Assembly: GCA_945917385.1 (NCBI GenBank)
Contig: CAMEHJ010000002.1
Location: forward strand, 1 to 19,505
Direction of reading: 5' to 3'
Length of the DNA stretch: 19,505 nucleotides
From: an uncultured bacterium
Lineage (GTDB): Bacteria; Bacillota_A; Clostridia; Oscillospirales; Oscillospiraceae
Made by a program: the position numbers and the translations under genes. Below, piece by piece: positions 4,159 to 17,874 of the stretch (its first letter is position 1; each line of letters opens with the position of its first letter). The notes beneath the pieces were generated by a model. It saw only the letters and a list, made by a program, of their open reading frames with translations, was not told the DNA's origin and did no database searches.

Positions 4159-4785
4159 TCACTGTCCCTCCATTGATTTCATGTAATCCCTGAGCGCTTC
4201 AAGCGTTTTCCCGTCTCCCCGCCCGCTCAGCTCCACCGAATATCCCCTCAGCACGAGTAGCGCCTGCATAATCAGCACCGTCATGTCAGCACCGGCTTCG
4301 TTCTTCGTGTTCTGAAGCTCTGCGGAGAACTTCTGCGCCGCATCAAACCTTGCCTGAACATTGTTCACTGCGGGGCGCTCGTACTCCTTGCAGATGCGCT
4401 CTGTGGCGGTATACAGCTCGTCCGTTTTGCAGAGAAATTTCCACAGCGCCGCATACTCCGTTTTAAGCTCCTCCACCGTGAACGCCGTCTGCATATCCTC
4501 CGCCCCGACGCTTACCCCCCAGTTCCGGGCAAACTGCCTGAGGTTTCTCTTACGCTGCGGGTACGTCCACTGGCACAGCCCGTAGCCTACGCCGTCAGAG
4601 ATGCAGCGCTCCGGATTCGCGTCAAAAAGCTTTGTGTACTGCGCGTCGGTGAGGCTTGTCATGCCTCTCTGTGCGATATTGGCTTTAAGCCCGCTTTCGC
4701 ACTGCATATTGCCGAGCATCGCGCAGGCGCCCTCGTGCGTCATGCCGGCGCGCCGCAGCTCATCATAAATCGTCTGTGCGCTCAT
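4159..4785 (-). CDS. Endolysin with phage tail-lysozyme-type domain
   Basis: A 208-aa peptidoglycan hydrolase. Residues about 3-150 match the phage lysozyme 2 (tail lysozyme) domain: GACAMLGNMQCESGL (about 19-33) holds the likely catalytic Glu30, and YGLCQWTYPQRK (about 68-79) is the second family hallmark. Residues about 168-205 (IMQALLVLRGYSVEL...GDGKTLEALRDYM) resemble a shortened peptidoglycan-binding repeat. There is no signal peptide, so export through the holin is expected. AAGGGGG lies 5 nt before the ATG, and the start overlaps the stop of a tiny upstream ORF. Placement next to XhlA-like and holin genes favours lysis over a virion-bound role. Confidence 0.85.
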   Translation of the reverse strand: MSAQTIYDELRRAGMTHEGACAMLGNMQCESGLKANIAQRGMTSLTDAQYTKLFDANPERCISDGVGYGLCQWTYPQRKRNLRQFARNWGVSVGAEDMQTAFTVEELKTEYAALWKFLCKTDELYTATERICKEYERPAVNNVQARFDAAQKFSAELQNTKNEAGADMTVLIMQALLVLRGYSVELSGRGDGKTLEALRDYMKSMEGQ

Positions 4786-5339: not shown

Positions 5340-6005
5340 TCACGCCAAGTATATTCTTGTAATGCTGCCAATCAGATTGTCGACATAACCATTGCCAGCC
5401 GATACACAAATATAATGGTTGCCGGTCAATGCGCTGATATCGACCATCCACTCCCCGTTTGTTGTATCAAGCTCCGCACTCGCTACATACATCTGGTTGG
5501 TATCGTTGGCGTGTGGTGTTACAGTAGTAACGCCCGCTCTGCTCTTATCGCCGTTTGAGTTCACGACTTGAGAGAACGAACCCTCAAAGACTACGCGGTC
5601 GTAGTCAGTGAGATCGAGGGCGTCTGTTGTGTACGCGGTCGCTCCTTTTTCATAGGTCCCACTTTCGCCTATTTCAAAAAGTATGGTTTCTCCGACCGTA
5701 ACCTTTCCGTGTGGTTTCTCTATTGTCGTAAACGGTACTATTGCGCCGCCGTTGAAAATTTCAACCGAATAATTAAGTGTCACGCTCTCGCTCTGACCCT
5801 CGCTTGTTATCTCGACGCTCTGAGCCTTTGTGTTTGTCCCGTCCGTCGCTGTGACCGTCCATGCGGCCGCATAAGGAATGAGGAAAAATCCCTGTCCGCC
5901 CGTGTCTTTAAGCGTAAGCGTTTTCGTGCCGTCAGTGCAGGTGCATACAGACCCGGCAGGATAAGTAACGCCGATAACCGCAAAGGCTTTGGCTCCGCCG
6001 CTCAT
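5340..6005 (-). CDS. Phage tail/fibre-tip protein with N-terminal Ig-like domain
   Basis: A 221-aa protein. Residues about 5-83 form an all-beta module (FAVIGVTYPAGSVCTCTDG, WTVTATDGT, then VTLNY), the carboxypeptidase-regulatory/Ig-like kind often added to surface-binding phage proteins. The rest (about 84-221) is also beta-rich, with a Gly/Asp/Asn-rich end that could be a receptor- or glycan-binding domain. Its ATG overlaps the stop of the tail-fibre gene by four bases (ATGA), so the two are probably made in linked amounts. No catalytic residues recognised. A receptor-binding role is an inference from position and composition. Confidence 0.65.
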   Translation of the reverse strand: MSGGAKAFAVIGVTYPAGSVCTCTDGTKTLTLKDTGGQGFFLIPYAAAWTVTATDGTNTKAQSVEITSEGQSESVTLNYSVEIFNGGAIVPFTTIEKPHGKVTVGETILFEIGESGTYEKGATAYTTDALDLTDYDRVVFEGSFSQVVNSNGDKSRAGVTTVTPHANDTNQMYVASAELDTTNGEWMVDISALTGNHYICVSAGNGYVDNLIGSITRIYLA

Positions 6006-7312
6006 AACGTAAATCCTCCGACCACCTCCGCATTGCCGCTGATATACCAGCGGTCAAGCCGTTCGACCGTATCGCGAAGGATAAGCTTTGCCGCCGCCAT
6101 ACCGAAGGGCGCCACGGTGACGGTTTCGGGCGTGCTCCCGTCGCAGAGCAAAAGCGCCGTGTTCAGCCCCGCCGAAATCGTGACTGCCGCCTCGCCGGTG
6201 TTCAGCACCGCAAACTCAGCCCCCACGGGTATCGTCTCGTCATACGAAAGCGTCAGCGCCGTCTCCGTACCGGCAAGCAGCGTCATCCCGCAGTGCTCCG
6301 CGCCTATAAGCGTGTCCGCCTCGATTGCAAGAACCGGGCTGTACAGCGCATCCCGCGCGAGCTTTGAACGGCTGACTGCGGCGTCTTTGAGCTTTGCCGC
6401 GGTCACTGCGCCGTCCTCGATGTTACCGGTTTTCACCGTAATCGGGTCCGCCCCGTCGGGCAAATGCCTGACATTGTGGTACGGGAACAAGGTCAGGGCG
6501 GCGTTGAAGGTCTGCTCTGTTCCGGTGTATCCCGCTTCGCAGGCCGCCTGATAGGGGCTTTTCCCGTCGTCGCCCTTATCTCCCTTGTCGCCCTTTGCAC
6601 CCATGATGTTCACGGTCTCCGGGTTTTCAAGTCCGCCGTCATTCGTCCACGAGAGGTTGCCGTTACTCTCAACGCTCGGCGTAAAGGTCACGCCCGGTGC
6701 GCCGTCGTCGCCTTTTGCGCCCTGCAGTTTACCGTTGTTGACCCACGCGGAGCCAACGCCGTCCCATATATAAAGGTCGTAGGGCTCTCCGCTGCCGACT
6801 CCGTAGATGTCTCCGGGCGAGGGGTTTTCCTGTGCCGCCGCAAGCTCCTCCGCGCTGTTGTAGAAGCCCTTGATCTCGAAGCTTCTTCCGTCGAATTTCC
6901 CCTCGTCCGCCGCGTCCTTCACCGCCTGCGCCATAAGCAGCGCGGTGCTCGCCTTCGCGTCGATCTGCTCCGCGACCGACATGGGTATGCTGTGCAGCGG
7001 CTCATCAATGAGACCGCTCTCCTTCACGGAAAGAATAACCGGCACCGTGGTGAGCCGACGCTCCCCGTCGCTTCCCGTGACAAAGACCTCCCACTGCCCC
7101 AGACTCAGGTTCAGCCCCATCTCCGCCGTTATCCTGTCGTCCGCAAGATTCAGGTCAAAAACGGTGTCCCCCTGTCTGAAGTGGGCCCATTTAGAGAATC
7201 CGTCCCAGTCTCCGCTGAAGAAAAAGCGTGCCTCAAGGTATTTGAAGCTGTTTGCCGCTATCACCGGGGACGCGAAGCGGATGCTCTGCTGTGTAATGTA
7301 AAAATCAATCAT
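6002..7312 (-). CDS. Tail fibre/receptor-binding protein with collagen-like repeats
   Basis: A 436-aa structural protein. Residues 1-97 form a beta-rich N-terminal domain, likely the attachment to the virion. Residues about 110-160 are a helical Ala/Glu-rich linker, 163-195 an aromatic 'SPGDIYGVG...LYIWDG' segment. Two collagen-like Gly-X-Y tracts lie at 198-207 (GAKGDDGAPG) and 238-251 (GAKGDKGDKGDDGK). A second part starts near HNVRHLPDGADPIT (279-292) and includes DGAVTAAKLKDAAVSRSKLA, typical of trimeric fibres. Collagen-like tracts imply a homotrimer. AGGAG lies upstream of the ATG at 7312. It is followed by two smaller fibre-region genes, consistent with host recognition. Confidence 0.8.
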   Translation of the reverse strand: MIDFYITQQSIRFASPVIAANSFKYLEARFFFSGDWDGFSKWAHFRQGDTVFDLNLADDRITAEMGLNLSLGQWEVFVTGSDGERRLTTVPVILSVKESGLIDEPLHSIPMSVAEQIDAKASTALLMAQAVKDAADEGKFDGRSFEIKGFYNSAEELAAAQENPSPGDIYGVGSGEPYDLYIWDGVGSAWVNNGKLQGAKGDDGAPGVTFTPSVESNGNLSWTNDGGLENPETVNIMGAKGDKGDKGDDGKSPYQAACEAGYTGTEQTFNAALTLFPYHNVRHLPDGADPITVKTGNIEDGAVTAAKLKDAAVSRSKLARDALYSPVLAIEADTLIGAEHCGMTLLAGTETALTLSYDETIPVGAEFAVLNTGEAAVTISAGLNTALLLCDGSTPETVTVAPFGMAAAKLILRDTVERLDRWYISGNAEVVGGFTL

Positions 7313-7315
7313 TGT

Positions 7316-7432
7316 TTACTCCTGGCTAATTTCTTCGTTCAGCTTCTGAACGAGCCGCACGAGATAGTCGCGCAGCTCCCGAAGCTGCTGCTGCTCGCTG
7401 CCTCTGAGCATCGGGGGGAGTTCAAGCATCAT
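7316..7432 (-). CDS. 38-aa phage protein between tail and fibre genes
   Basis: The ORF begins MMLELPPMLRGSEQQQLREL and continues RDYLVRLVQKLNEEISQE. Its first ATG overlaps the TGA of the upstream tail gene and GGGGAG precedes it; the second ATG at 7429 is an alternative start. The composition predicts one long amphipathic helix, probably a coiled coil. Its stop lies 3 bases before the tail-fibre ATG. It could be a small linker or chaperone for fibre assembly; no family recognised. Confidence 0.6.
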   Translation of the reverse strand: MMLELPPMLRGSEQQQLRELRDYLVRLVQKLNEEISQE

Positions 7433-9192
7433 ACATCACTCCCCGCCTCAAGCACCCTTGCCATTGACAACAGTCTGAACTCGCCCTTTCCTTCGAGCCT
7501 GAGTCTCAGATGGTCGCAGCGTCTCGGGCAGACAGGAACCGTCACCGTCCCCGTACCGTTCAGCTTTATTCTGCCCTTGTGCTCCCACTCGCCTGAGGAG
7601 TCGTACTGGATGAAGATGTCCATCTCCGCACCCTCCTCCATGCTCAGTCTGAAATCGAAGCGTCTCAGGTTGAATCTTGACATATACTTTCTGACCGGGT
7701 ACTGGTAGTAAAGCATCCCGCTCTCCAGCATCCACTCGACGAAGCGCTCTTCCTCGCCCTCGCTTCCGTTCATCGTAAACAGCGCCTCATCCGTCATGCA
7801 CCAGAGGTCACCCCCGTACTCCGCGAAGAACAGCGCGTTAAGGCCGTCCTCCTTCATCCAGAGATGTTTGCCGATGTCGTAGACAAACAGGCTCCTTTCG
7901 CCGTTCTCGTCGCTCATGGCAATAAAGTATTTGTCTCCGAGCGTCCCCGCCGCGGCGTCGTAGTACACACCGTCTCCGAGGGCGGTCGATACCCCAACCG
8001 GAAAGCCGCCCTGGTATGCACAGATATCCTTTTTGGATTTGTAGTAGAGCGTCTCGTTCACGATTGCAAGGCTCTTCCGGCAGCCCTTCTGCACCCCTCT
8101 GCATACTGTCTCGCTGACGCGGTGAGCGCCGTAGGAGGACACAGTCACGGTATGGATGACATTTTCCTTAAAGAACATCGGGCTTCCGAGGTAGTTTATC
8201 GCCCCCGTCCACGCGCCGTCGGAGCCAACCGAAGCTCTCCACGAATCCGTGCTCAGGCCCTGAAACTGCTCCCAGTTTTTGAAATCGCCGAGCGCGCAGC
8301 AGTAAATTTCGTTGATGTTCTTTTCTCCGTCGTTGCCGTATCTGCACCCCCAGAGTCTGTTTTTGCACTCGCAGACGAAATCCATATCCGGCACGCTTCT
8401 TGAAATGGTGATACAGCCCTCGGTCTGGTTGATCGTCTCTCTGATAAGCCCGCTCACGACGATGTAATCGTAAACTCCGTCCCCGCCGCCTATGGCCTCG
8501 ATTATCCTGCTGCCGTTCAGGCGCTCATCCTGCGCGCCGGAGATCTTCACTCCGTCGAGCCTGTTAAACAGCCCCGGCAGCTCCCCCTGGGAAACGAAGC
8601 GCAGCTTTGTGTAAACGCTCGGCAGCTCCACCCAGTTCTTGTTCTCGCCGCTCCACTGCTTGAGTACGTCGTTTTCTCCCGACGTGTCAATCCAAAGCTG
8701 CATAGCCTTAGGCTCCTCCGGCGGTGCGGCGCCGACCGTGGGCACGGCGTATTCGCTGCCGTCCACTCTGCACATTGTGCAAACCACAGCGCCCGTTGAG
8801 CTGTAAAAGGCCTCCATGCTGCCGCAGTCCGTCTCGTCTGCCGTGTTGAAGTAGCGCTTGTCCGGGAAGATGCAGATGTACGCGCCCATGCTGACAAGCT
8901 GTTTTTCTCCGTCAGAGAGCCCGGTGAGCGCCGTCTCCCTCCCGTCGTAGAAAAGCGTTCCGTCTGCCACATATGCGAGCTTTTCCTTTGCGAGCATTCC
9001 CCCCGGATTACTAAGCTCCCGGACTTTTCCTCTCTTTTTTCTGGAGGCTATCATCGGGTAGAGTGCGCTCGTCATATTCATCATGTCGTTGAACTCACCG
9101 CCTCCGATTTTCATGGCTCTGTGGTAGCCTCTGAAGGTGTCGGTGATGTCTTTTCTTGTGCTCCTTGCGGCGATTCTCGGATAGTCCGGCAT
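7429..9192 (-). CDS. Large tail protein, P22 gp10/tail-tube-B-like (beta-propeller type)
   Basis: The 587-aa product starts MPDYPRIAARSTRKDIT. An upstream in-frame extension to 9288 exists, but the ATG at 9192 has AGGAGG nine bases before it and avoids overlapping the previous gene. The protein has repeated blocks of aromatic/Gly-rich strands ending in a Trp or Tyr (such as NRLWGCRYG, LFVYDIGKHLWMKE, GDLWCMTD), the pattern of beta-propeller proteins that cap or stabilise short phage tails. It carries an unusual number of Cys residues (for example VCTMC, FVCECK, IYCC). It is the largest tail protein, and no tape-measure gene exists. A tail-hub or nozzle role is inferred from length, strand pattern and position. 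Confidence 0.68.
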   Translation of the reverse strand: MPDYPRIAARSTRKDITDTFRGYHRAMKIGGGEFNDMMNMTSALYPMIASRKKRGKVRELSNPGGMLAKEKLAYVADGTLFYDGRETALTGLSDGEKQLVSMGAYICIFPDKRYFNTADETDCGSMEAFYSSTGAVVCTMCRVDGSEYAVPTVGAAPPEEPKAMQLWIDTSGENDVLKQWSGENKNWVELPSVYTKLRFVSQGELPGLFNRLDGVKISGAQDERLNGSRIIEAIGGGDGVYDYIVVSGLIRETINQTEGCITISRSVPDMDFVCECKNRLWGCRYGNDGEKNINEIYCCALGDFKNWEQFQGLSTDSWRASVGSDGAWTGAINYLGSPMFFKENVIHTVTVSSYGAHRVSETVCRGVQKGCRKSLAIVNETLYYKSKKDICAYQGGFPVGVSTALGDGVYYDAAAGTLGDKYFIAMSDENGERSLFVYDIGKHLWMKEDGLNALFFAEYGGDLWCMTDEALFTMNGSEGEEERFVEWMLESGMLYYQYPVRKYMSRFNLRRFDFRLSMEEGAEMDIFIQYDSSGEWEHKGRIKLNGTGTVTVPVCPRRCDHLRLRLEGKGEFRLLSMARVLEAGSDV

Positions 9193-9205
9193 TCTCCTCC
9201 ACCTC

Positions 9206-9577
9206 CTAAAACAGGAATGTTTTTCCTGTGCCTGTGTGCGTGTGCGTTCTTGTAACAGAGTTTGCGTACTGTCTGTAAGCGCTGTCAAACAGCGTGATGT
9301 GCTGGTTGTATTTACCCGTCTCGTAGTTTTCCGACGCCATCATCGCCTGGAGAAAATGGCTGTAAACGCCCTGAGCATACGGCTCGTCAACCAGAAGCTC
9401 CTCCTCGCCGGTGACGTATCTCCCCGGCTGACTCATGCACGGCTCATAAACGCTTGAAAGCTCAAGGAAAATCTGCCCGTCAAGCTCGGAGAGCCAAGCG
9501 AGCTTCTTGTCCGCGCCGAACTGGTTCGGCTCAAGCTCATCCACCTTTCGGATGATATCAATGGCTTTCATTTTCAC
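9206..9577 (-). CDS. Head-tail connector/adaptor-like protein, 123 aa
   Basis: The sequence MKAIDIIRKVDELEPNQFG and KKLAWLSELDGQIFLEL looks like the N-terminal helices of connector/adaptor proteins placed after the capsid gene in Clostridia phages of this type. A YRQYANSV segment follows, then a His/Thr-rich tail (TRTHTHTGTGKT). The GTG at 9577 overlaps the previous stop (GTGA), and an ATG two codons later (9571) is an equally possible start. It is followed by the large tail protein, so a gp4-like adaptor or tail-tube-A-like role joining portal to tail is likely but unproven. Confidence 0.65.
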   Translation of the reverse strand: MKMKAIDIIRKVDELEPNQFGADKKLAWLSELDGQIFLELSSVYEPCMSQPGRYVTGEEELLVDEPYAQGVYSHFLQAMMASENYETGKYNQHITLFDSAYRQYANSVTRTHTHTGTGKTFLF

Positions 9578-9786
9578 TTGCTGTTTTTCATCCCGTCCAT
9601 GTTTTCGTAGAAGATGTCCGCGGCGCGCTCGCTCCGGAAAATCTCCTTAGCCACAAATTCGGGCACCATGGATTTCTTGCCCCTCGGCAGCAGGTAGTTG
9701 ACGCCGTTCACCGCCACGAAGAAATTGGGGTCCTCTCTGTCGCTGCCTCTGGGAATTGCTATTTCAACGCGTTTTACTTCGCTCAT
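9574..9786 (-). CDS. Small conserved phage protein downstream of capsid, 70 aa
   Basis: A 70-aa protein containing VEIAIPRGSDREDPNFFVAV and NGVNYLLPRGKKSMVPEFV, a short beta-rich, basic sequence that I associate with the gene just after the major capsid protein in Clostridia prophages. AGGAGG-type ribosome binding sequence (AAAGGAGG) precedes the ATG. The stop overlaps the next start. It could be a head-completion or capsid-decoration protein; no assigned function. Confidence 0.62.
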   Translation of the reverse strand: MSEVKRVEIAIPRGSDREDPNFFVAVNGVNYLLPRGKKSMVPEFVAKEIFRSERAADIFYENMDGMKNSK

Positions 9787-9817
9787 TCCTGTTCCTCCTT
9801 TTCAAAATTTGCTCTGC

Positions 9818-9843
9818 CCCGCTCCCTCCGGTGAGGGAGCGGG
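9818..9843 (-). terminator. GC-rich hairpin between capsid and downstream tail genes
   Basis: A perfect 11-bp stem (CCCGCTCCCTC with its complement, 9818-9828 and 9833-9843) with a 4-base loop lies 17 bases after the capsid stop codon. No T-run follows on the minus strand, so it is more likely a partial terminator or an mRNA 3'-end stabiliser than a full stop. It would allow more capsid than tail message. Confidence 0.55.
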
Positions 9844-9859
9844 CTTAATTACTTGTTCG

Positions 9860-10969
9860 TCAGTTCTCCTCGTCGGCCGCGCTGAAGCTGGAGCAGCTCA
9901 TAACTCTGAGCAGTCTTTCGGGGTAAAGGATAGTCGCGCCGTTTGTCTCGAACTTGTAGCCGATGGTGGAAAACTGGTTGAGCGGGCCGCCGATCTCACC
10001 CTTGTCGTGAATAATCATCTCAAGCGCGCCGCCTTCGGGGTCGATGATGCCGAAGCTGTCCTTGCCGAAGAAGTAGCTTGCGTAGGTCTTGGTGCCCTCC
10101 GCGTTTTTGTATTCGTCGCCGCCGAGCACGGGTGCAAAGACGTTCTCGATGAAGCGCACGCCGTGAAGCTCGCCTATCTCGCCGTTAAAAAGCTCGTCGG
10201 GAGAAGCGTACTTGTGCGCCTCTATCCAGCCCTCACATTCGCGCAGGTCGTGGGCGACCGAGGGGTGTACGACCGCGTAATAGCGGCCGTTGATGCGCGG
10301 GACGCGGTTTTTCTTCATGATGGTTACGGCCTTGTTTATCATCGCAGGTGTGAGCAGCGACATGATATCTGAGCCTGCCTTCATCGGCACGTCGCCGTCT
10401 CCGCTGCCGTTACAGCAGTTGGGGGTAGACTCCATAGCGCCGGTTGCGAGATTGATGTTATCGCAGTACAGTACGTTCGTACCCATGAGCAGTGCGTCGC
10501 GGATGAGCTTTTCCTGTGTCTCCGCCGCGGACGCGCCCATCTCCTCGGTCGCGCCGAGAATAACGTCGTCGTAGGCTCTCAGCTCAAGCTTGTCGGTAAT
10601 GGAGGTGTAGGTGCCGTACTGGTCGATGGTGCCGGTAACGGTTGTCACGCCGAACTTCTGACCGGTGGGGATAACGCCTTCGGTGAGCTTTGCGGCTCTC
10701 TCGAAGGTGTTCCACTTTCTCCATTCCACGGAGCCGTGGTGGTTTGCGGGCAGCGCCTGTCTCTTTGCAAACTGCGCGTAGAAAAGCTCGGTTCGGGTGT
10801 TTTCAAGCAGCTCAGTGTCGTAGTATGCCTTGAGCTCGGGCGTCAGGGTGTTGCCGCCGTCAAAGCCCGTAACGCTGCCGGTGCCTGCGTTTACGTAGCC
10901 GGCGGTGCCGTTTACAACGGTGCCGGCGTCTGCAAAGCTCTGAAGCATTTCAATGGTGTTTCTGTTCAT
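9860..10969 (-). CDS. Major capsid protein, N4-gp56 family
   Basis: A 369-aa coat protein starting MNRNTIEMLQSFADAGTVVN. The family signature is clear: GNTLTPELKAYYDTELLENT, VEWRKWNTFE, LTEGVIPTGQKFG, TIDQYGTYTSITDKLEL and DDVILGATEEMGASA, matching HK97-fold coat proteins annotated as N4-gp56. The ATG at 10969 has AAAGGAAC upstream; a longer in-frame start at 11035 would overlap the scaffold gene and is rejected. The LQSFADA segment at residues 9-15 resembles the Prp protease recognition site of ribosomal protein L27, suggesting removal of the first 12 residues. It follows the scaffold gene, as in most tailed phages. Confidence 0.9.
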   Translation of the reverse strand: MNRNTIEMLQSFADAGTVVNGTAGYVNAGTGSVTGFDGGNTLTPELKAYYDTELLENTRTELFYAQFAKRQALPANHHGSVEWRKWNTFERAAKLTEGVIPTGQKFGVTTVTGTIDQYGTYTSITDKLELRAYDDVILGATEEMGASAAETQEKLIRDALLMGTNVLYCDNINLATGAMESTPNCCNGSGDGDVPMKAGSDIMSLLTPAMINKAVTIMKKNRVPRINGRYYAVVHPSVAHDLRECEGWIEAHKYASPDELFNGEIGELHGVRFIENVFAPVLGGDEYKNAEGTKTYASYFFGKDSFGIIDPEGGALEMIIHDKGEIGGPLNQFSTIGYKFETNGATILYPERLLRVMSCSSFSAADEEN

Positions 10970-10994
10970 TTTGTTCCTTTCTTCGGGTGCCGCC

Positions 10995-11735
10995 CTATCC
11001 GCCGTAGGGTAGCTTCCTCCCCTGCGCTTTCGCATCGTAAATTCGTTTTTTCAGTGCTTCTCTCTGTTCTCTGGTCATGGCTCTGGGGTCGTCGGAAATT
11101 TTGCTGGCGCTCTGCCTGCCGGTGTTTTCTCTGGGTCTCAGCTCCCCTGCGCGCACCGAGTTTGAAACCGCCATGAGACTTTTCCTCGCCTCGCTCTCTC
11201 GAATCTCGGCGTAGTGCAGCGCGCAGTATGCGTCCTCAAGGCTCAGTCCGGTGTGCGGTGCTGTCAGACGCAGAAATCTCTCGTCCTCCATCGCCTTTGA
11301 AAGCTCAAAGTCCGGATATTTGGCTTTCATATACCTCTCCTGCGCGATGAGTGAGTCCAGATGCTCCTTTGCCTTTGCCCGTCTCCCCCTGTTTTCCCCG
11401 GCAAGAATCGTCTGCGCGAGCTGAGCTGCGTCCGTTTCGGAAAGCTCCGCTCCGTTTGCGTACCTGCGGCTTACCGCATCTATCACGGGTTTGAGCCTTG
11501 AGAGCGTTTCCTCGGCGTGCTTGCTGTTTCTCAGCCGTTTCTGAACGATATTCTGTACCGACGCGTCGTACTCTTTTTTGTACTCCGCGTCCTGAAGTAT
11601 CTCCCCCCAGCTCAGCCTTGAAGCACTTAAAGTCGGCTGAGTCTCGTTTGTCTGCCCGGCGTCGGCAGTAATGTCGCCCGTTGTCTGTGCCTCAGCCTCG
11701 GCGAAAAGCTGAAGCAGCCGAAAGATTTTCTGCAT
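10995..11735 (-). CDS. Phage scaffolding protein
   Basis: A 246-aa, charged, mostly helical protein directly before the capsid gene. It has LQLFAEAEAQ at residues 8-17, a Thr/Ala/Gly-rich linker, KKEYDASVQNIVQKRLRN (about 53-70) and long helices through the middle and C-terminus, ending in the basic segment KKRIYDAKAQGRKLPYGG. Scaffolds guide coat assembly and leave before or during packaging. LQLFA at 8-12 resembles the Prp recognition motif LQFFA, and a Prp-like gene lies two genes upstream, so N-terminal trimming after Phe11 is predicted. GGGAGG lies 7 nt before the ATG. Confidence 0.8.
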   Translation of the reverse strand: MQKIFRLLQLFAEAEAQTTGDITADAGQTNETQPTLSASRLSWGEILQDAEYKKEYDASVQNIVQKRLRNSKHAEETLSRLKPVIDAVSRRYANGAELSETDAAQLAQTILAGENRGRRAKAKEHLDSLIAQERYMKAKYPDFELSKAMEDERFLRLTAPHTGLSLEDAYCALHYAEIRESEARKSLMAVSNSVRAGELRPRENTGRQSASKISDDPRAMTREQREALKKRIYDAKAQGRKLPYGG

Positions 11736-11790
11736 ATGGATGCCTCCCTGTTTACTCCTTTATTTGAACCCGTAATGGGAAAAAGGGCTG

Positions 11791-12618
11791 TTATCTATGC
11801 GGCCTGTGGTCACCCTCTGCCCGTTCTCTGAGCATATCCAGCACGCTCTTCGGCTTCGGTATGTCCTCATACGCCATTCCCGAATACCCTGCTCCGGCTT
11901 CGCTTCCGTCCTCAGGCAGGTGATTTACCCTGAGATATTCCTTCCTCAGCGCCTGCGCCTGTTCCTTTGTCATCCCCGCCTCGCCGAGCTGCTCGTCGCT
12001 CGGCTGGTAGCCCGTCTGGCTTATGAGCTTATAGAGGTTGTCGTACAGCTTCTGTCTCTGCTCGAAGGCGCTGTTATACTGTTCCGATGCAATCTCCGAA
12101 ACGAACTTTGAGTCGCTTACTCTGTCGCGGTACCGGTCGTACTCGTTCTTTGCCGCCGTCATCGTTATGTCGAAGCTGTCCTTCAGCGCCTCGCCCTCCT
12201 CGGTGTACCTCTCATATGCGTCGGAATACAGCTCCGGCAGCACGTCGTTCAGCTTTTTCAGGTATGCGTCGTACTGCTGCTGTCCCGCCGCCTCACTGTA
12301 AGTTGAGGCGTAACCGCCCGTCAGCGCCGCGGTCTGCCCTACGGTGTTTCTCATCGCAAGCTCGCCCTCTCTGACGTATCTGTCCCTGTAGCTGCCGTAC
12401 ACCGGGTCGGAGGCGGCGTCGTAGCGAAACTCCCTTCTGTTCACGATCTTCCGGTACAGCTCGCTTATCTCGTCGTCATAGCTGCTTTTGAACTGCGGCA
12501 GAGTTTTCTCCGCCTCCTTCAGCGTTTCCATCGCGTACTCGTAGTCAGAGCCTGCCGCGGTCGTTCTGACCGTACCCGCGGTTTTCACCTTTTCTTCTTT
12601 CAAAAGTTCTTCGTCCAT
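11791..12618 (-). CDS. Conserved phage internal/ejection-like protein, unknown function
   Basis: A 275-aa, Tyr/Glu/Ala-rich, almost wholly helical protein. It contains DPVYGSYRDRYVREGELAM, a Gly/Ala/Thr patch (TGGYASTYSEAAGQQQYDAY) and several long amphipathic helices; no enzyme motif or membrane segment is seen. Its ATG overlaps the Prp stop (TAATG), with GGAGA upstream. Proteins of this kind occur between portal and scaffold in Clostridia phages. In podoviruses, helical proteins in the particle are ejected with the DNA and extend the tail across the envelope, so an ejection role would suit a phage without tape measure. This is inference; a second assembly factor is equally possible. Confidence 0.55.
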   Translation of the reverse strand: MDEELLKEEKVKTAGTVRTTAAGSDYEYAMETLKEAEKTLPQFKSSYDDEISELYRKIVNRREFRYDAASDPVYGSYRDRYVREGELAMRNTVGQTAALTGGYASTYSEAAGQQQYDAYLKKLNDVLPELYSDAYERYTEEGEALKDSFDITMTAAKNEYDRYRDRVSDSKFVSEIASEQYNSAFEQRQKLYDNLYKLISQTGYQPSDEQLGEAGMTKEQAQALRKEYLRVNHLPEDGSEAGAGYSGMAYEDIPKPKSVLDMLRERAEGDHRPHR

Positions 12619-12890
12619 TATCTTCTCCGTATCACTTTCACATACTGGGGGCAGTTATCTTCCAGCCATTCATACCCCGCCATTATCACTCTCACCGCGT
12701 CCTCACTTTGAAGTTCAAGCTCCGCGTGACCGCTCTCAAGCCTGACCTTCTCGTCTCCGAACGCCTTCTTTGCCGCGATTGCGAGCATGCTCGCCGCCGC
12801 GCACACGAGGTCGTTTCCGTATTCCGCCGCCCCCGCGTGTCCGCTCACGATTATTTTGCCGGACTTCTCACAGCAGACCACTTCTATCAT
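12618..12890 (-). CDS. Prp-family cysteine protease, phage-borne, likely prohead processing
   Basis: A 90-aa protein with the family signature GHAGAAEYGNDLVCAAASML. The catalytic pair is His18 and Cys30, twelve residues apart as in ribosomal-processing protease Prp of Firmicutes (His22/Cys34 in Staphylococcus aureus, from memory), which removes the N-terminal extension of ribosomal protein L27. Chromosomal prp normally lies between rplU and rpmA; here it lies between portal and internal protein. No classical head-maturation protease is present, and both scaffold and capsid carry LQxFA near their N-termini, so processing of these proteins is the likely task. The ATG lies one base after the portal stop. 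Confidence 0.82.
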   Translation of the reverse strand: MIEVVCCEKSGKIIVSGHAGAAEYGNDLVCAAASMLAIAAKKAFGDEKVRLESGHAELELQSEDAVRVIMAGYEWLEDNCPQYVKVIRRR

Positions 12891-12891
12891 T

Positions 12892-14757
12892 TCAATCCGG
12901 CTGCGCCGCGCTCTGGGCGCGTTCCCTTGCTTTTCTCATGTGACCGTTCTCCCTGTCCGCGCCGGTTTTGAGCTTTGTCGCGCCCGGCTGCCTGCTTTTC
13001 ACCCCGGTTATACCCTCTATCAGCGCCTGCGCCATATTGGGTTCGTATTTCTGTGTCAGTGCCAGCGCGTACTGCTGGTAGAGCGCCAGCTCCCTGTGCA
13101 TATTCCCGTTGTAGCTGAGCTGCTGCATAAGCTCGTCCTTGCCCTCGAATTCCATCATGCTCATGCAGGCCAGTGCCTGGTCGGCGCGTTCGGGAGTAAA
13201 GAAGCCGAGCTGGTAAAACTGCAGCGCCAGCTCGTTCTGGCTTAGCTTGGTGTAGTAGTTGCTTCTCTGCGGCACCACCTTAATATCGAATACCGGCACT
13301 CTGATGCCGAGGTCGATTTCGCCCGCCATTCCCTGTGCCTGGGGTCTGAGACCGGCGTTCGTGTACGCAATGAACTGCTCGATGCCGAGCTGCCCCGTGA
13401 TTCGAAACTGTCTCGGCACATCGTAGAACTCGCGGATAAGCTCTATGCACATATTGATTATTTTGCCGTACACGCGGTAGCTTGCTCTGGTTGCGTCGCG
13501 GCTTCCCTTGCCGCTTGCCTCCTGAAGCGCCGCGATTGCCGACGCGGCGGTGACGCCGGAGCTTGCGATGCCCACCGCCGTCTCGGTGTTGCCGCTCGTC
13601 TCGCGAAGCTCGTTAATAATGTTTGTGCGCATATTTATGTAGTTGCCGCTGAGCGGTCGGTACTCCACGCTTCTCAGGCTGTCCTCGCCGAGATTGCCGC
13701 TGACGTGGATAATGGGGTTATTGAGGTTCAGAAACTCGTCCTCATTGATAGCCCCGTCAACTCTCTGGAAGTAGCGCGGCACCGCGCCCACCATTGTATT
13801 TTTCACGAAAGCGGTCTGCATGAGGTCTATCTGCGTCTGGCTGTTTTTGCAAAGGTCGATGAAGCCGTATCCGCAGGGGCTTCCCTCCACCGGGAACAGG
13901 CTGTCAAAAACAAAGGGGTACATCCCGTGCCCGTACAGTCCCTCGCGCATTACCGCTGCGTCGGGCGCAAGCTCCTGCCGTGTGAGATATTCGGCGTACT
14001 CGTTCTCCGTCGAGTACAGCACCTCATCCCCCACGAACTTGCAGTAGTGCAAAACGGTCTTTCCTCCGCGCTTTTTCTTGTAGTACGCGTCCACCACGGT
14101 GCTCTTTCCCTCGGTGGAAACGCTGTCGTCATACACGAAGCTTGTCGCGGTAAAGCCCGTTGTTTTCAGCCTGCCCTCAAGCCACGGGTACAGCTCGACG
14201 AGTCTCTCGTTATCTTCAAGCTTTGTGTGGAAGAAAAACTTGCTGTCCTGGATATCCCTCACGCCCGGCTCCCAGAAGACGTTCAGCAGATCTATCCTCT
14301 CGATTGCGATGTCGCCGAGCCCTCCCAGCTTACTTGCGTCCCAGTAGACCTTGTAAACGCCCGTGCCGGTTTTCAGCTTCTGCCACATGGCGTCCGAATA
14401 TGTTTTTTCAAACTCGTTCTGCTCCAAAATCACCGGGATGATCCGTGACAGAATCGCGGCCTCCGCCTTATCCCCCGGCTCGCGCGGGAGGATACTGGGC
14501 TCGGGGTACGCCTCCATCGCGTCTGCGTGCTTTGAGACTATCACATTGTGCAGCCACCCGGACACGGCCTGAAACCCGTTCAGTCCCTCCGTGACCTTGC
14601 GTTCCTCCGCGCTGTTTCTGAGCCTCCACCAGTTTTCGGCAGCCACGGTGCGCCTCTCAACGCTCGCCTTGCCTGTTTTGTATTTATGCAGGATGCGCGT
14701 CATCTCCTGCACCTGTGTCCTGCCCACAACGGGTGCGTATTCAATAAAATCTTCCAT
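12892..14757 (-). CDS. Phage portal protein
   Basis: A 621-aa protein placed directly after the large terminase. It opens with MEDFIEYAPVVGRTQVQEM and contains ERIDLLNVFWEPGVRDIQDS, KFFFHTKLEDNERLVELYPW, MYPFVFDSLFPVEGSPCGYG and IGFID-type helix residues before SQTQIDLMQTAFVKNTM, typical of large portal proteins of short-tailed phages. The dodecameric ring it forms is the DNA gate and binds terminase and tail. The C-terminal ~60 residues are basic and disordered-looking (KLKTGADRENGHMRKARERA). AGGAGAGG lies upstream of the ATG. Length above 600 aa fits P22-like rather than HK97-like (about 400 aa) portals. Confidence 0.85.
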   Translation of the reverse strand: MEDFIEYAPVVGRTQVQEMTRILHKYKTGKASVERRTVAAENWWRLRNSAEERKVTEGLNGFQAVSGWLHNVIVSKHADAMEAYPEPSILPREPGDKAEAAILSRIIPVILEQNEFEKTYSDAMWQKLKTGTGVYKVYWDASKLGGLGDIAIERIDLLNVFWEPGVRDIQDSKFFFHTKLEDNERLVELYPWLEGRLKTTGFTATSFVYDDSVSTEGKSTVVDAYYKKKRGGKTVLHYCKFVGDEVLYSTENEYAEYLTRQELAPDAAVMREGLYGHGMYPFVFDSLFPVEGSPCGYGFIDLCKNSQTQIDLMQTAFVKNTMVGAVPRYFQRVDGAINEDEFLNLNNPIIHVSGNLGEDSLRSVEYRPLSGNYINMRTNIINELRETSGNTETAVGIASSGVTAASAIAALQEASGKGSRDATRASYRVYGKIINMCIELIREFYDVPRQFRITGQLGIEQFIAYTNAGLRPQAQGMAGEIDLGIRVPVFDIKVVPQRSNYYTKLSQNELALQFYQLGFFTPERADQALACMSMMEFEGKDELMQQLSYNGNMHRELALYQQYALALTQKYEPNMAQALIEGITGVKSRQPGATKLKTGADRENGHMRKARERAQSAAQPD

Positions 14758-14766
14758 AATCCTCTC

Positions 14767-16203
14767 CTACTTCTTCAACTGATTGAGCGGGTCATTGATA
14801 AAGCTTTTCTTTTCTACGGGTCTGAGCGGCGCCACCGGCCTTGACATACAGACGTATCTCCACTCGTCCGCGACGTGGTCCTCAAGCTCGGTGTCGAGGT
14901 CCTCCGGCCTGTGCTTACTGAACACCATCAGCGGTATGGTTCTGATGAATGCCTCGCAGTTACTGAAAACGTACATTCTGCTGTACCCCTCCTCGTCGAA
15001 CTGCAAGCGGTAGTGGCACTGCATCCATCCGGGTATTCTCTTGTTGTCCCCCGGCACGAAGTACAGCCCGTACCTGCTCGCGGTATCCGCGATGCTCTCT
15101 CCGCGGCTTGCGTCCCAGATAGCGGGATCTGCCACGCCCTCTATGTTTTTCCCTCTGAGCCACGGGTGTTCTCTTTCTATCCTTGAAATCTCCTGAAACT
15201 GCTGGTCCGGCGTCCAGCGCACGCCCTCGTTTGCCGTCCCCGTGCATCCGTACAGCTCAAGTATTCTGTACAAAACCCCGTCGTAGTCGAGCGCCCACCA
15301 GGCGCACGAGAAGGGCTTGCCGTACCCGAAGTCGTAGGAGCGCAGAATTTTCCAGCCCCTTCTGCTCCCGGAGCACAAATCCAAGGGCTCTATAACATGG
15401 ACCCATCTTCTCTGCCGTCTCAGCTCGTCCCTGTCGAGCCTGCAGCCGTGCTCCCACGCAGCTTTCATATCCGGCTCAATGCGGAAATCCTCGAAGAACT
15501 GCCCCTCGAAGATGTCCCAGTTGCCGTGCAGCCATGCCTCCCTGAGCTTAGGCGGCAGCGCCTCAAGCTGTTTTATGTAGTCGGGGTCGGCGCGCATCAG
15601 TGCCTTGTTGTCTGTGACGAGCGCCTGAATGAAGCTGTGCTCCTGCGCGTTTTCCCCGTCCTTGAATCGCTTGTCGATGAACAGCCGCTTGACCCAGCCG
15701 TGCCCCTCACCTCCGGGGTTGCAGGTGAAGTAGATTCTCTTGGGGAAGTCGTTTACACCTCTGACGCAGGCCTTGAGCTTTTCGATTTTCTCCTCGCTCT
15801 GCTGTGTGGCCTCGTCCACGAACAGCACGTCCACCTCGGTCCCCTGGAACTTGAGCGTATCGCGCTCATTGTCGCAGTAGCGGAAAAGTATCCTGCTCCC
15901 GTTTGCGAAGGTGATGTGCTTTTTGCCGTCGTTATATTTGGCGAAGCTCTCGTCCTCCCCGTCACAGCCCAGCATTTCGCACAGCGGTATAATGTGGTTT
16001 TCCTGAAGCTCCGGGTAGGTTTTACGAATTATCATCACCTTGATCCCCGGATACCGCAGACACAGCAGAACGGCCTTCACTCTCACGGCCCAGCTCTTGC
16101 CTCCGCCTCTTGCCCCGCCGTAGCCTATATATTTATGCCCATCCGCCATAAACTGCTTTTGTTTGTCGTTTGGCTGAGGTATATTCAGCCTTGAAGTCGT
16201 CAC
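14767..16203 (-). CDS. Terminase large subunit (ATPase and nuclease)
   Basis: A 478-aa packaging motor. The ATPase has Walker A GGARGGGKS (residues 29-37), Walker B VDVLFVDE (124-131) and the coupling motif FTCNPGG (159-165). The C-terminal RNase-H-like nuclease has the acidic triad candidates Asp291 (YDFGY), Asp359 (VADPAIWD) and Asp446 (HVADEWRY), so both activities look intact. It starts with GTG overlapping the stop of the small-subunit gene, with GGAGGAG 8 nt upstream. It pumps DNA into the prohead through the portal encoded next. The intact enzyme indicates that the element could still package DNA, though the packaged DNA (own or host) cannot be told from sequence. Confidence 0.93.
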   Translation of the reverse strand: MTTSRLNIPQPNDKQKQFMADGHKYIGYGGARGGGKSWAVRVKAVLLCLRYPGIKVMIIRKTYPELQENHIIPLCEMLGCDGEDESFAKYNDGKKHITFANGSRILFRYCDNERDTLKFQGTEVDVLFVDEATQQSEEKIEKLKACVRGVNDFPKRIYFTCNPGGEGHGWVKRLFIDKRFKDGENAQEHSFIQALVTDNKALMRADPDYIKQLEALPPKLREAWLHGNWDIFEGQFFEDFRIEPDMKAAWEHGCRLDRDELRRQRRWVHVIEPLDLCSGSRRGWKILRSYDFGYGKPFSCAWWALDYDGVLYRILELYGCTGTANEGVRWTPDQQFQEISRIEREHPWLRGKNIEGVADPAIWDASRGESIADTASRYGLYFVPGDNKRIPGWMQCHYRLQFDEEGYSRMYVFSNCEAFIRTIPLMVFSKHRPEDLDTELEDHVADEWRYVCMSRPVAPLRPVEKKSFINDPLNQLKK

Positions 16204-16583
16204 CTGCTCAGCTCCTCCGTCTCACCCAAAAAGCAAACCTCCAGCCGTCTGCCGGAGCCGTATTCCTCGCTCCCCTCCCTCCGCATCTCTCTCAGCTCCT
16301 TGAGCGCGCCCGTCATGGCCTTGATCTCCTTGCTGTCCATCTCCGCACTTCTGTCAATGGCAAGCTCCATCTTCTCAAGCAGCTTTGCCGTGACCCGCTC
16401 CATTCTCCCCTCGCTGCCGGACTCCTCCCGCGATTTTTTCAGCTCGACCCAGTTCTCTTTCTTTGCCCTGCGGCAGAGTGTCCGGTAGTTAACGCCCTCA
16501 TCCTCCGAAAGCTTCAGGAGACTGATCTCGTTGCAGAGATATCTGTTTTTGATGCCCTCCCAATCGGTCATGATACTGCGCAC
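16200..16583 (-). CDS. Putative terminase small subunit
   Basis: A 127-aa protein (123 aa from the internal ATG). Its N-terminus carries a helix-turn-helix-like segment (LLKLSEDEGVNYRTLCRRAKK, split here as LLKLSEDEGVNY and RTLCRRAKKENW), followed by a long charged helix region (ERVTAKLLEKMELAI, IKAMTGALKELREM) suited to oligomerisation. This is the usual plan of small terminases, which recognise the packaging site and regulate the large subunit, and the gene directly precedes it with a 4-base overlap. The GTG at 16583 has AGAGG close by; the ATG at 16571 overlaps the previous stop and is the alternative. Call rests on position and architecture. Confidence 0.72.
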   Translation of the reverse strand: MRSIMTDWEGIKNRYLCNEISLLKLSEDEGVNYRTLCRRAKKENWVELKKSREESGSEGRMERVTAKLLEKMELAIDRSAEMDSKEIKAMTGALKELREMRREGSEEYGSGRRLEVCFLGETEELSR

Positions 16584-17189: not shown

Positions 17190-17546
17190 TTGTTCGAATA
17201 TGACAGATTTGATGAATTGCGCCGTTCACGGGGTATAACGAAGAAGTTTATAGCGCAGTCATTGGGACGCAGTCCCGCTCTCTGTCAGGATTGGAAGCAG
17301 CAGAAATCACAGCCAAGCTCAACTCAGCTCTCCAAAATCGCGGAAATACTTGATACTACACCCGCCTATCTCTGCGGCGAGACGGACGACCCCTCCCCCG
17401 ACTCGTCGGACGAGCTTTCACAGCTTCTTGAAACCCTCAGGGAGCGCGAGGATATGCGTATGCTCTTTAAGCTCGCCAGCACCGCCACTCCGGAGGATGT
17501 GCGTAAAGCCGTAAAGATAATCGAGGCGCTGCGCCGCGATGATTGA
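17190..17546 (+). CDS. Xre-family (HTH) phage repressor
   Basis: A 118-aa protein with an N-terminal HTH_3 domain at about residues 6-63 (DELRRSRGITKKFIAQSLG, then the recognition helix near SPALCQDWKQQ, then LSKIAEILDTTPAYL). The C-terminal part (about 75-118) is a short helical region, possibly for dimerisation. There is no S24/LexA-like autocleavage domain, so induction must occur by another route, plausibly cleavage by the adjacent ImmA-like protein. It starts at TTG with GGGGGTG 5 nt upstream; no ATG fits. It probably represses the leftward particle promoter through the upstream dyads. Its end overlaps the metallopeptidase gene by 8 bases. Confidence 0.85.
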   Translation: MFEYDRFDELRRSRGITKKFIAQSLGRSPALCQDWKQQKSQPSSTQLSKIAEILDTTPAYLCGETDDPSPDSSDELSQLLETLREREDMRMLFKLASTATPEDVRKAVKIIEALRRDD

Positions 17547-17874
17547 CTACTATGTGCGTGAGCTTGCGCTGCCCCTCGCCGTTGAGGGAGTAACCATCCC
17601 GAATCCCGACGGCAGCTTTGATATTTATATAAATTCGCTTTTGTCCGCGCCGCGCCGCGAAGAAGTGCTTGAGCATGAGCTGAACCATATCCTGCATGAC
17701 CATTTTTATATTGATATGCCCGTCTCGGTTATGGAGCGGCAGGCAGACGGCGAGGTGCTGAATGTCGCGCTGCACCCGCCCGCGGGGCTTATTACAGCTT
17801 TTCATTCGGAGGAAGCTTTGCTGAACTGGCTCCGCCTTGTCCTTTCACAGCGCCGTATTAACCTGAAAATCTAA
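17539..17874 (+). CDS. ImmA/IrrE-family metallopeptidase
   Basis: A 111-aa protein with the zinc-metallopeptidase signature HELNH at residues 46-50 (EEVLEHELNHILHDH) and a downstream MERQAD segment (65-70) that could supply the third ligand, as in ImmA of ICEBs1 and related phage proteins. ImmA proteins cleave the partner repressor on induction. The gene overlaps the repressor by 8 bases in another frame, so the two are translationally coupled, which matches the repressor-ImmA pairing. It is on the short side for the family, with the helical N-terminus reduced, but the active site is complete. Confidence 0.85.
   Translation: MIDYYVRELALPLAVEGVTIPNPDGSFDIYINSLLSAPRREEVLEHELNHILHDHFYIDMPVSVMERQADGEVLNVALHPPAGLITAFHSEEALLNWLRLVLSQRRINLKI

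What the first reader, a model, noticed from the sequence alone, without database searches (positions are those of the whole stretch)
10950..12890. Phage-encoded Prp protease with matching LQxFA sites in scaffold and capsid N-termini
Seen: the 90-aa gene has the Prp motif with His18/Cys30. The scaffold has LQLFAEA at residues 8-14, and the capsid has LQSFADA at 9-15. Known: Prp cleaves ribosomal protein L27 after the Phe of the LQFF-A site, and in S. aureus host Prp also processes phage 80alpha scaffold and capsid proteins. Inferred: this phage brings its own Prp within the head operon, so it can trim its scaffold (after Phe11) and capsid (after Phe12) without a conventional prohead protease. 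It may also cleave or compete for host L27, linking head assembly with ribosome maturation.
Basis: partly seen in the sequence, partly recalled or inferred. Interest (0 to 1): 0.8.

Follow-up and report, generated by a model that had tools for sequence, protein, structure and literature searches.

The report
Head-maturation Prp protease with matching sites
A phage-like gene cluster in gut bacteria carries its own copy of a small protease that many bacteria use on their ribosomes, apparently to trim its own shell proteins, in hosts that seem to have neither that protease nor its ribosomal target.

Summary
The 90-aa gene is a Prp peptidase (Pfam PF04327; model matches S. aureus Prp) with His18, Asp27 and Cys30; LQLFA and LQSFA lie in the scaffold and capsid N-termini. 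An LQxFA-type site is in 156 of 159 evaluable capsids of this family, but 9 of 1,824 other ORFs. It tracks element-encoded Prp: 59 with both, 0 Prp only, 3 site only, 10 neither (Fisher p = 5e-10); with phylogeny controlled the direction holds, but too few independent pairs exist for significance. Eight Lactobacillales phages with Prp beside the portal carry such sites in both proteins.

The L27 idea is not supported. None of 46 short-L27 host genomes has prp at rpmA; their Prp genes lie on element contigs or beside portal-type genes.

Unexpectedly, window-type elements sit beside the single thrC in 20 MAGs, show no integrase or replication gene in the window, and track host genes (TerL vs thrC r 0.91; vs unlinked Obg 0.87). 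That suggests a vertically inherited, gene-transfer-agent-like cluster, comparable to Faecalibacterium FpGTA. Prior art: phage Cp-1's own clan-CR protease; 80alpha's use of host Prp. Cleavage itself is inferred.

The parts
12618..12890 (-). Prp cysteine protease, His18/Asp27/Cys30
   Evidence: Pfam PF04327, phrog_4478, AlphaFold model matching SaPrp
11791..12618 (-). 275-aa ORF of unknown function between Prp and scaffold
   Evidence: no Pfam or PHROG hit; relatives beside Prp in other loci
10995..11735 (-). scaffold-position protein (246 aa) with LQLFAEA at residues 8-14; predicted cut after Phe11
   Evidence: sequence; phrog_13908, unknown function; scaffold role inferred from position
9860..10969 (-). 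major capsid protein (369 aa) with LQSFADA at residues 9-15; predicted cut after Phe12
   Evidence: Pfam PF25209, phrog_1357 major head protein
12892..14757 (-). P22-type portal protein
   Evidence: PF16510, phrog_156
14767..16203 (-). large terminase
   Evidence: PF04466, phrog_979
16200..16583 (-). small terminase
   Evidence: phrog_1206, E 2e-8
7429..9288 (-). internal virion or tail protein (619 aa)
   Evidence: phrog_511
6002..7312 (-). tail-fibre-like protein
   Evidence: phrog_3904 and others
4159..4785 (-). phage lysozyme
   Evidence: PF18013
3678..3956 (-). holin
   Evidence: PF16079, phrog_1129
17190..17874 (+). XRE regulator and ImmA/IrrE-like pair at the packaging end of the cluster
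   Evidence: PF01381; PF06114 below its cut-off; XRE gene kept beside thrC in 20 MAG loci

Best explanation
The 90-aa Prp is the dedicated head-maturation protease of a short-tailed-phage-type head module. Shown by sequence: it has the Prp fold and catalytic residues, and its own capsid and scaffold-position protein carry Prp-type sites. Inferred: it cuts after Phe12 of the capsid and Phe11 of the scaffold (LQxF|A) during procapsid assembly. Hosts of the module's close relatives have short L27 and no prp at rpmA, so an element that uses this step there must bring its own enzyme; where the element lacks Prp, the capsid site is usually gone too. In the window's closest relatives the module is probably a vertically inherited, GTA-like cluster rather than a free phage (my estimate about 0.6).
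For: Prp family and fold; H18, D27, C30 invariant in 51 aligned Prps; site in 156 of 159 evaluable capsids against 9 of 1,824 other ORFs; Prp/site table 59/0/3/10, p 5e-10; eight Lactobacillales phages with both; six capsid relatives with no Prp found in the stretch fetched have no site; 46 of 46 short-L27 hosts without prp at rpmA, the Prp genes not on the capsid's contig lying beside portal-type or 275-aa-ORF genes; dN/dS below 1 in all pairs with a defined dS; thrC linkage and distance correlations.
Against: No cleavage data. Related rows: only 5 independent pairs, sign test median p 0.25. MT835662 has a Prp-like gene but no LQxFA in its capsid. Three capsids keep the site without an element Prp found (L156, L157, L422). 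Only 63 of 154 scaffold-position ORFs have the strict site, 83 of 142 loci under a relaxed pattern. In 80alpha, uncleavable capsid or scaffold mutants are viable (PMC5744158, passages), so cleavage may be dispensable.
Confidence: 0.83

Rival explanations
1. Prp acts on host ribosomes: it cleaves or competes for L27 and ties head assembly to ribosome maturation.
For: The family includes the L27-processing Prps, and some relatives live in hosts with long L27 and chromosomal prp (20 of 67 genomes read).
Against: 46 of 67 read host L27s have no extension and none of those genomes has prp at rpmA. The phage Prps mostly form a lineage apart from host Prps. The gene sits in head operons.
Confidence: 0.05
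2. The protease reading is right, but the cluster is an ordinary or decaying prophage, with integration and replication genes lost or outside the window, not a GTA-like element.
For: Wider relatives lie on viral contigs of 30-44 kb; the window is not beside thrC; right flanks differ between subgroups.
Against: No integrase or replication gene among the window ORFs scanned. thrC on the same side in 20 genomes, distances tracking thrC and unlinked Obg (TerL r 0.91 and 0.87), against TerL r 0.16 in 7 prophage-like controls; those controls' capsid r 0.76 (n = 8, p 0.09) is less clear. dN/dS below 1 does not tell a phage from a GTA.
Confidence: 0.35
3. The LQxFA motif is conserved for another reason, such as a chaperone or assembly signal, and Prp is not its protease.
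For: In 80alpha the scaffold N-terminus is required but its cleavage is not (PMC5744158, passages).
Against: The motif matches the known Prp site and goes with Prp in two unrelated capsid families.
Confidence: 0.1

Closest known systems
Bacterial Prp (PF04327, MEROPS C108), e.g. S. aureus Prp
   Same: Fold, His/Asp/Cys motif, site type (PMC9405229, passages and sections 4 and 11).
   Different: Encoded in a head operon rather than between rplU and rpmA; predicted substrates are capsid and scaffold; occurs in hosts with short L27.
Streptococcus phage Cp-1 maturation protease (clan CR with Prp; PMC12445089, passages)
   Same: Phage-encoded, Prp-related, trims the N-terminus of the major head protein.
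   Different: Cp-1 removes 48 residues; no LQxFA is seen in its head or scaffold protein; other gene order.
Phage 80alpha with host Prp (PMC5744158, passages)
   Same: Scaffold and capsid both carry the LQxF|A site near the N-terminus.
   Different: 80alpha uses the host's Prp and encodes none.
Lactobacillales phages with Prp beside the portal (Oenococcus phiS11 and others)
   Same: Prp in the head operon and sites in both scaffold and capsid.
   Different: Another capsid family; annotated only as 'peptidase', 'ribosomal protein', 'unknown' or hypothetical.
FpGTA of Faecalibacterium (PMC12946183, sections 9 and 26 and passages)
   Same: Podovirus-like head, portal, terminase, fibre and lysis genes without replication genes, in gut Clostridia.
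   Different: Two separate operons; no hit for protease, peptidase or Prp in the main text. Sequence homology was not tested here.

Membership tests
Prp peptidase (PF04327, C108) | Match over the family's curated cut-off | tested here: met
   46.4 bits against a cut-off of 27
Prp peptidase (PF04327, C108) | His-Cys dyad 12 residues apart with Asp three before Cys | tested here: met
   H18, D27, C30 align with SaPrp; invariant in 51 Prps
Prp peptidase (PF04327, C108) | Prp fold | tested here: met
   pLDDT 94.8; best PDB match 7kld, E 2.3e-6
Prp peptidase (PF04327, C108) | Cleaves LQxF|A substrates | not testable with these tools
   needs coexpression or mass spectrometry
Ribosome-processing Prp of bacteria | Gene between rplU and rpmA, long L27 in the same cell | tested here: not met
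   gene lies between portal and scaffold; long L27 absent in 46 of 67 read host genomes of relatives; window host itself not held
Conventional prohead protease | Match to such a family in the head module | tested here: not met
   none among the 20 window proteins scanned
Gene transfer agent | Vertical inheritance at a fixed chromosomal place | tested here: inconclusive
   met for 20 MAG relatives on the thrC side; right flanks differ and the window itself is not beside thrC
Gene transfer agent | No integration or replication genes | tested here: met
   none among the window ORFs scanned
Gene transfer agent | Particles pack random host DNA | not testable with these tools
   needs particles

The most novel reading that the evidence does not exclude
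A vertically inherited, podovirus-like gene transfer agent of Oscillospiraceae matures its heads with its own Prp, in bacteria that have no ribosomal Prp and no long L27. Prp would then have a conserved capsid role independent of the ribosome, and its retention, and its joint loss with the capsid site, would show that the cleavage is under selection.
Probability: 0.5. Interest if true: 0.78.

Novelty: new variant of a known kind. Interest (0 to 1): 0.64.

Why it matters
The role of Prp cleavage in 80alpha assembly is still described as unclear (PMC5744158, passages). Elements that carry their own Prp in hosts without one give a clean system: the enzyme should not be needed by the cell, so it can be removed and only particle assembly should respond. 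If the cluster is a GTA, it adds a maturation step that the FpGTA paper's main text does not mention, and a marker (Prp plus LQxFA in head genes) for finding more such elements in gut bacteria.

Tried and rejected
The window's own genome is not held, so its host prp and L27 could not be read. A viral-contig scan with Prp alone confirmed no relative; the capsid scan worked. Loci that first seemed Prp-less (L093, L097, L117, L122, L141, L148) had Prp elsewhere on the same contig. Capsids L013-L015 and L159 first seemed to lack the site; it lies behind a non-ATG start. A second possible fixed site (glpK near L091, L099, L143, L145) is weaker, since strand and distance vary. Matching the variable x residue to Prp clade was judged uninformative, because both are co-inherited. 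A phylogeny-controlled test of Prp against site lacks power. In print: I found no held paper that links element-encoded Prp to LQxFA sites in scaffold and capsid; most subscription papers are not in that library. Wall 2015 and Martin 1998 are not held and are cited only through other papers. Rows dropped before the count: MAG loci on contigs under 11 kb and all viral contigs, L150 (truncated), MT835607 (no Prp found in its record, FQFFA in its capsid), MT835606 and the Lactobacillales phages (other capsid family), L420 (same locus as L157). Dropped before the tree: rows over 80% alike, short rows, and the host Prp of G046, which my pattern missed.
Full report
WHAT IS THERE. The operon on the minus strand runs TerS (16200-16583), TerL (14767-16203), portal (12892-14757), Prp (12618-12890), a 275-aa ORF, the scaffold-position protein (10995-11735), capsid (start 10969), then virion, fibre, lysozyme and holin genes down to 3678. 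A divergent XRE and ImmA-like pair lies at 17190-17874. Among the window ORFs scanned there is no integrase, replication gene or conventional prohead protease. The cluster is about 14 kb.

THE PROTEASE. Prp passes the Pfam cut-off. In 51 aligned phage Prps, G17, H18, G25, D27 and C30 are among the invariant residues. In a wider set of 141 non-chromosomal Prps, His and Cys are present in all; four came out shifted in the script and were read by eye. Left out of that set were L142 (an insertion missed the pattern; both residues are there) and the truncated L015 and L076. The AlphaFold model (pLDDT 94.8) has S. aureus Prp 7kld as best PDB match (E 2.3e-6), and the 12 matches with E <= 0.001 are S. 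aureus Prp and the entries for S. mutans SMU.848, S. pneumoniae 2idl and T. maritima TM1457.

THE SITES. From 159 capsid relatives (80 on viral contigs; 79 MAG loci) plus the window, 159 of 160 could be evaluated and 156 carry [LI]QxFA or a close variant (nine of them by eye). In 123 of the 147 found by script it lies exactly 40 residues before the same capsid motif. Spellings among the 147: LQLFA 52, LQFFA 30, LQHFA 22, LQYFA 19, IQFFA 8, others 16. Under a stricter start-codon rule the counts are capsid 141 of 157, scaffold-position ORFs 63 of 154, other ORFs 9 of 1,824, Prp ORFs 0 of 103. With G or S allowed after Phe, 83 of 142 loci have a scaffold-position site. So the capsid site is the better conserved one.

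PRP AND SITE GO TOGETHER. MAG loci on contigs of 11 kb or more (63): 58 with Prp and site, 0 with Prp and no site, 2 with site only (L157, L156), 3 with neither (L100, L143, L158); p = 2.5e-4. In 2 of the 58 (L088, L113) Prp is on another contig of the genome. The genomes of L100, L143 and L158 hold no Prp match at all. As a further test, 80 genomes were searched for the capsid: 79 with a single Prp match, plus G048, the L157 genome. Nine have a relative; 7 of them lack the site and 2 keep it (L420, which is the L157 locus, and L422). L157's capsid begins MKVNIQLFA, close to its host L27's MLKVNIQLFA; L422 has DLQLFA against a host GLQFFA. With these and the window the table is 59/0/3/10, p = 5e-10; with nine further phage records 61/1/3/16. 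The rows are related: on supported branches there are only 5 independent pairs, in which the site goes the same way in 2-4 and the other way in 0, sign test median p 0.25; parsimony needs 8 changes for Prp and 7 for the site.

INDEPENDENT PHAGES. Eight Lactobacillales phages of another capsid family with Prp beside the portal (Oenococcus Krappator27, phiS11, phi9805; Enterococcus phiFL3A; Lactococcus TP712, PLgT-1; Latilactobacillus TMW 1.1447 P1; Lactobacillus Lj965) all have a site in both scaffold and capsid, LQ[RFIHL]FA except TP712's capsid, LQRFS. They were chosen from 28 matching records; duplicates, near relatives, Listeria and short records were not read. Six relatives of the window capsid in which no Prp was found in the 8-kb stretch fetched (Bacillus Page, Paenibacillus SV21 and API480, Streptomyces FlowerPower, Alteromonas AD45-P4, Bacteroides BS162P1) have no site. 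Of the human-gut records, MT835606 has Prp and three LQLFA proteins, MT836159 and MT836218 have Prp and a capsid site, MT835662 is a counterexample (Prp-like gene, no LQxFA in the capsid), and MT835607 has FQFFA in the capsid with no Prp found.

HOSTS. The relatives' 79 MAG loci lie in 77 genomes. L27 was read in 67: 46 short, none with prp at rpmA; 21 longer, of which 20 have prp at rpmA and one (G069) has an unusual short extension and none. In the short-L27 genomes the Prp matches lie on the capsid's own contig or, where on another contig, beside a portal relative or a relative of the 275-aa ORF, with no L27 or L21 motif nearby. Two of the 46 (G027, G029) come from MAGs titled Bacteroidales and Bacteroidaceae and may be misbinned; for G049 the short reading assumes a TTG start. 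In a wider draw of the family of G001, 149 of 300 genomes have a Prp match and 272 of 300 an L27 match. The best matches of a window flank gene (CapA-like) are in G024, G296 and G001 at 58-61% identity; G024 and G001 have short L27. So the window's host probably lacks chromosomal Prp, but that is inference.

ORIGIN. In a tree of 112 Prps, 90 phage rows form one side; the other side holds the 12 host rows and 10 phage rows, among them the Lactobacillales ones, and 11 of the 12 host rows cluster (98/91). The tree has few columns and many unresolved forks. This argues against recent capture from present hosts.

A GTA-LIKE ELEMENT. In 20 MAG loci the XRE gene is followed by thrC, which lies 8.3-9.3 kb from the capsid start, and each of those 20 genomes has one thrC match at E <= 1e-40. 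Protein distances follow thrC: TerL r 0.913, portal 0.889, Prp 0.935, capsid 0.898 (n = 20), fibre 0.785 (n = 19), XRE 0.443 (n = 20); Mantel p 2e-4 each. They also follow Obg, which lies elsewhere (TerL r 0.868, n = 12), and L21 (0.656, n = 16). A control set of prophage-like relatives in long-L27 hosts gives TerL r 0.161 (n = 7, p 0.14) and capsid r 0.762 (n = 8, p 0.09), so the control is clear for TerL only. dN/dS is below 1 in all pairs with a defined dS for Prp, capsid and TerL; the highest is 0.64, for Prp. A related capsid is found in 53 of 81 genomes of the genus draw. Against: right flanks differ between subgroups, though the window and L084 share the CapA-like neighbour family, and the window has a glyoxalase gene where the others have thrC. 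The closest known kind is FpGTA, reported in 2026 from Faecalibacterium with ~40 nm capsids and ~9 kb DNA (PMC12946183, sections 9 and 26).

WHAT IS KNOWN. Clan CR already holds phage Cp-1's own protease, which removes 48 residues of its head protein (PMC12445089, passages), and 80alpha's capsid and scaffold are cut by host Prp (PMC5744158, passages). A phage-borne Prp relative for capsid maturation is therefore not a new idea. New here, as far as the searches made show, are its spread through head operons with matched sites, its occurrence in hosts without ribosomal Prp, its joint loss with the site, and the link to a vertically inherited element.

Noticed in passing
L081-L084, L086, L094, L102-L104, L106, L110-L112, L114-L116, L119, L144, L146, L147: Window-type element beside thrC in 20 MAGs with distances tracking host genes: a candidate gene transfer agent.
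   Followed up: partly
L339 (MT835606) 9698-10222: A third LQLFA N-terminus, on a 174-aa protein in the tail region, besides scaffold and capsid.
   Followed up: no
L144-L149 capsid genes: Capsid relatives with an insertion between residues matching about 287 and 290 of the window capsid; seen as split matches in one open frame for some of them.
   Followed up: no
L091, L099, L143, L145: Another subgroup has glpK nearby, a possible second fixed site; strand and distance vary.
   Followed up: partly
L013-L015, L159: Capsid site lies upstream of the first ATG/GTG/TTG, which implies a rare start codon.
   Followed up: no
L337 (OR846610.1, Enterococcus phage Efs 1-1-1): Record filed as phage holds a Prp gene directly before an L27 gene, so this stretch looks like host chromosome.
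   Followed up: no
L017, L026, L093, L097, L117, L327: Relatives with a giant protein of about 1,850-2,940 aa; in L093, L097 and L117 Prp lies several kb from the capsid.
   Followed up: partly
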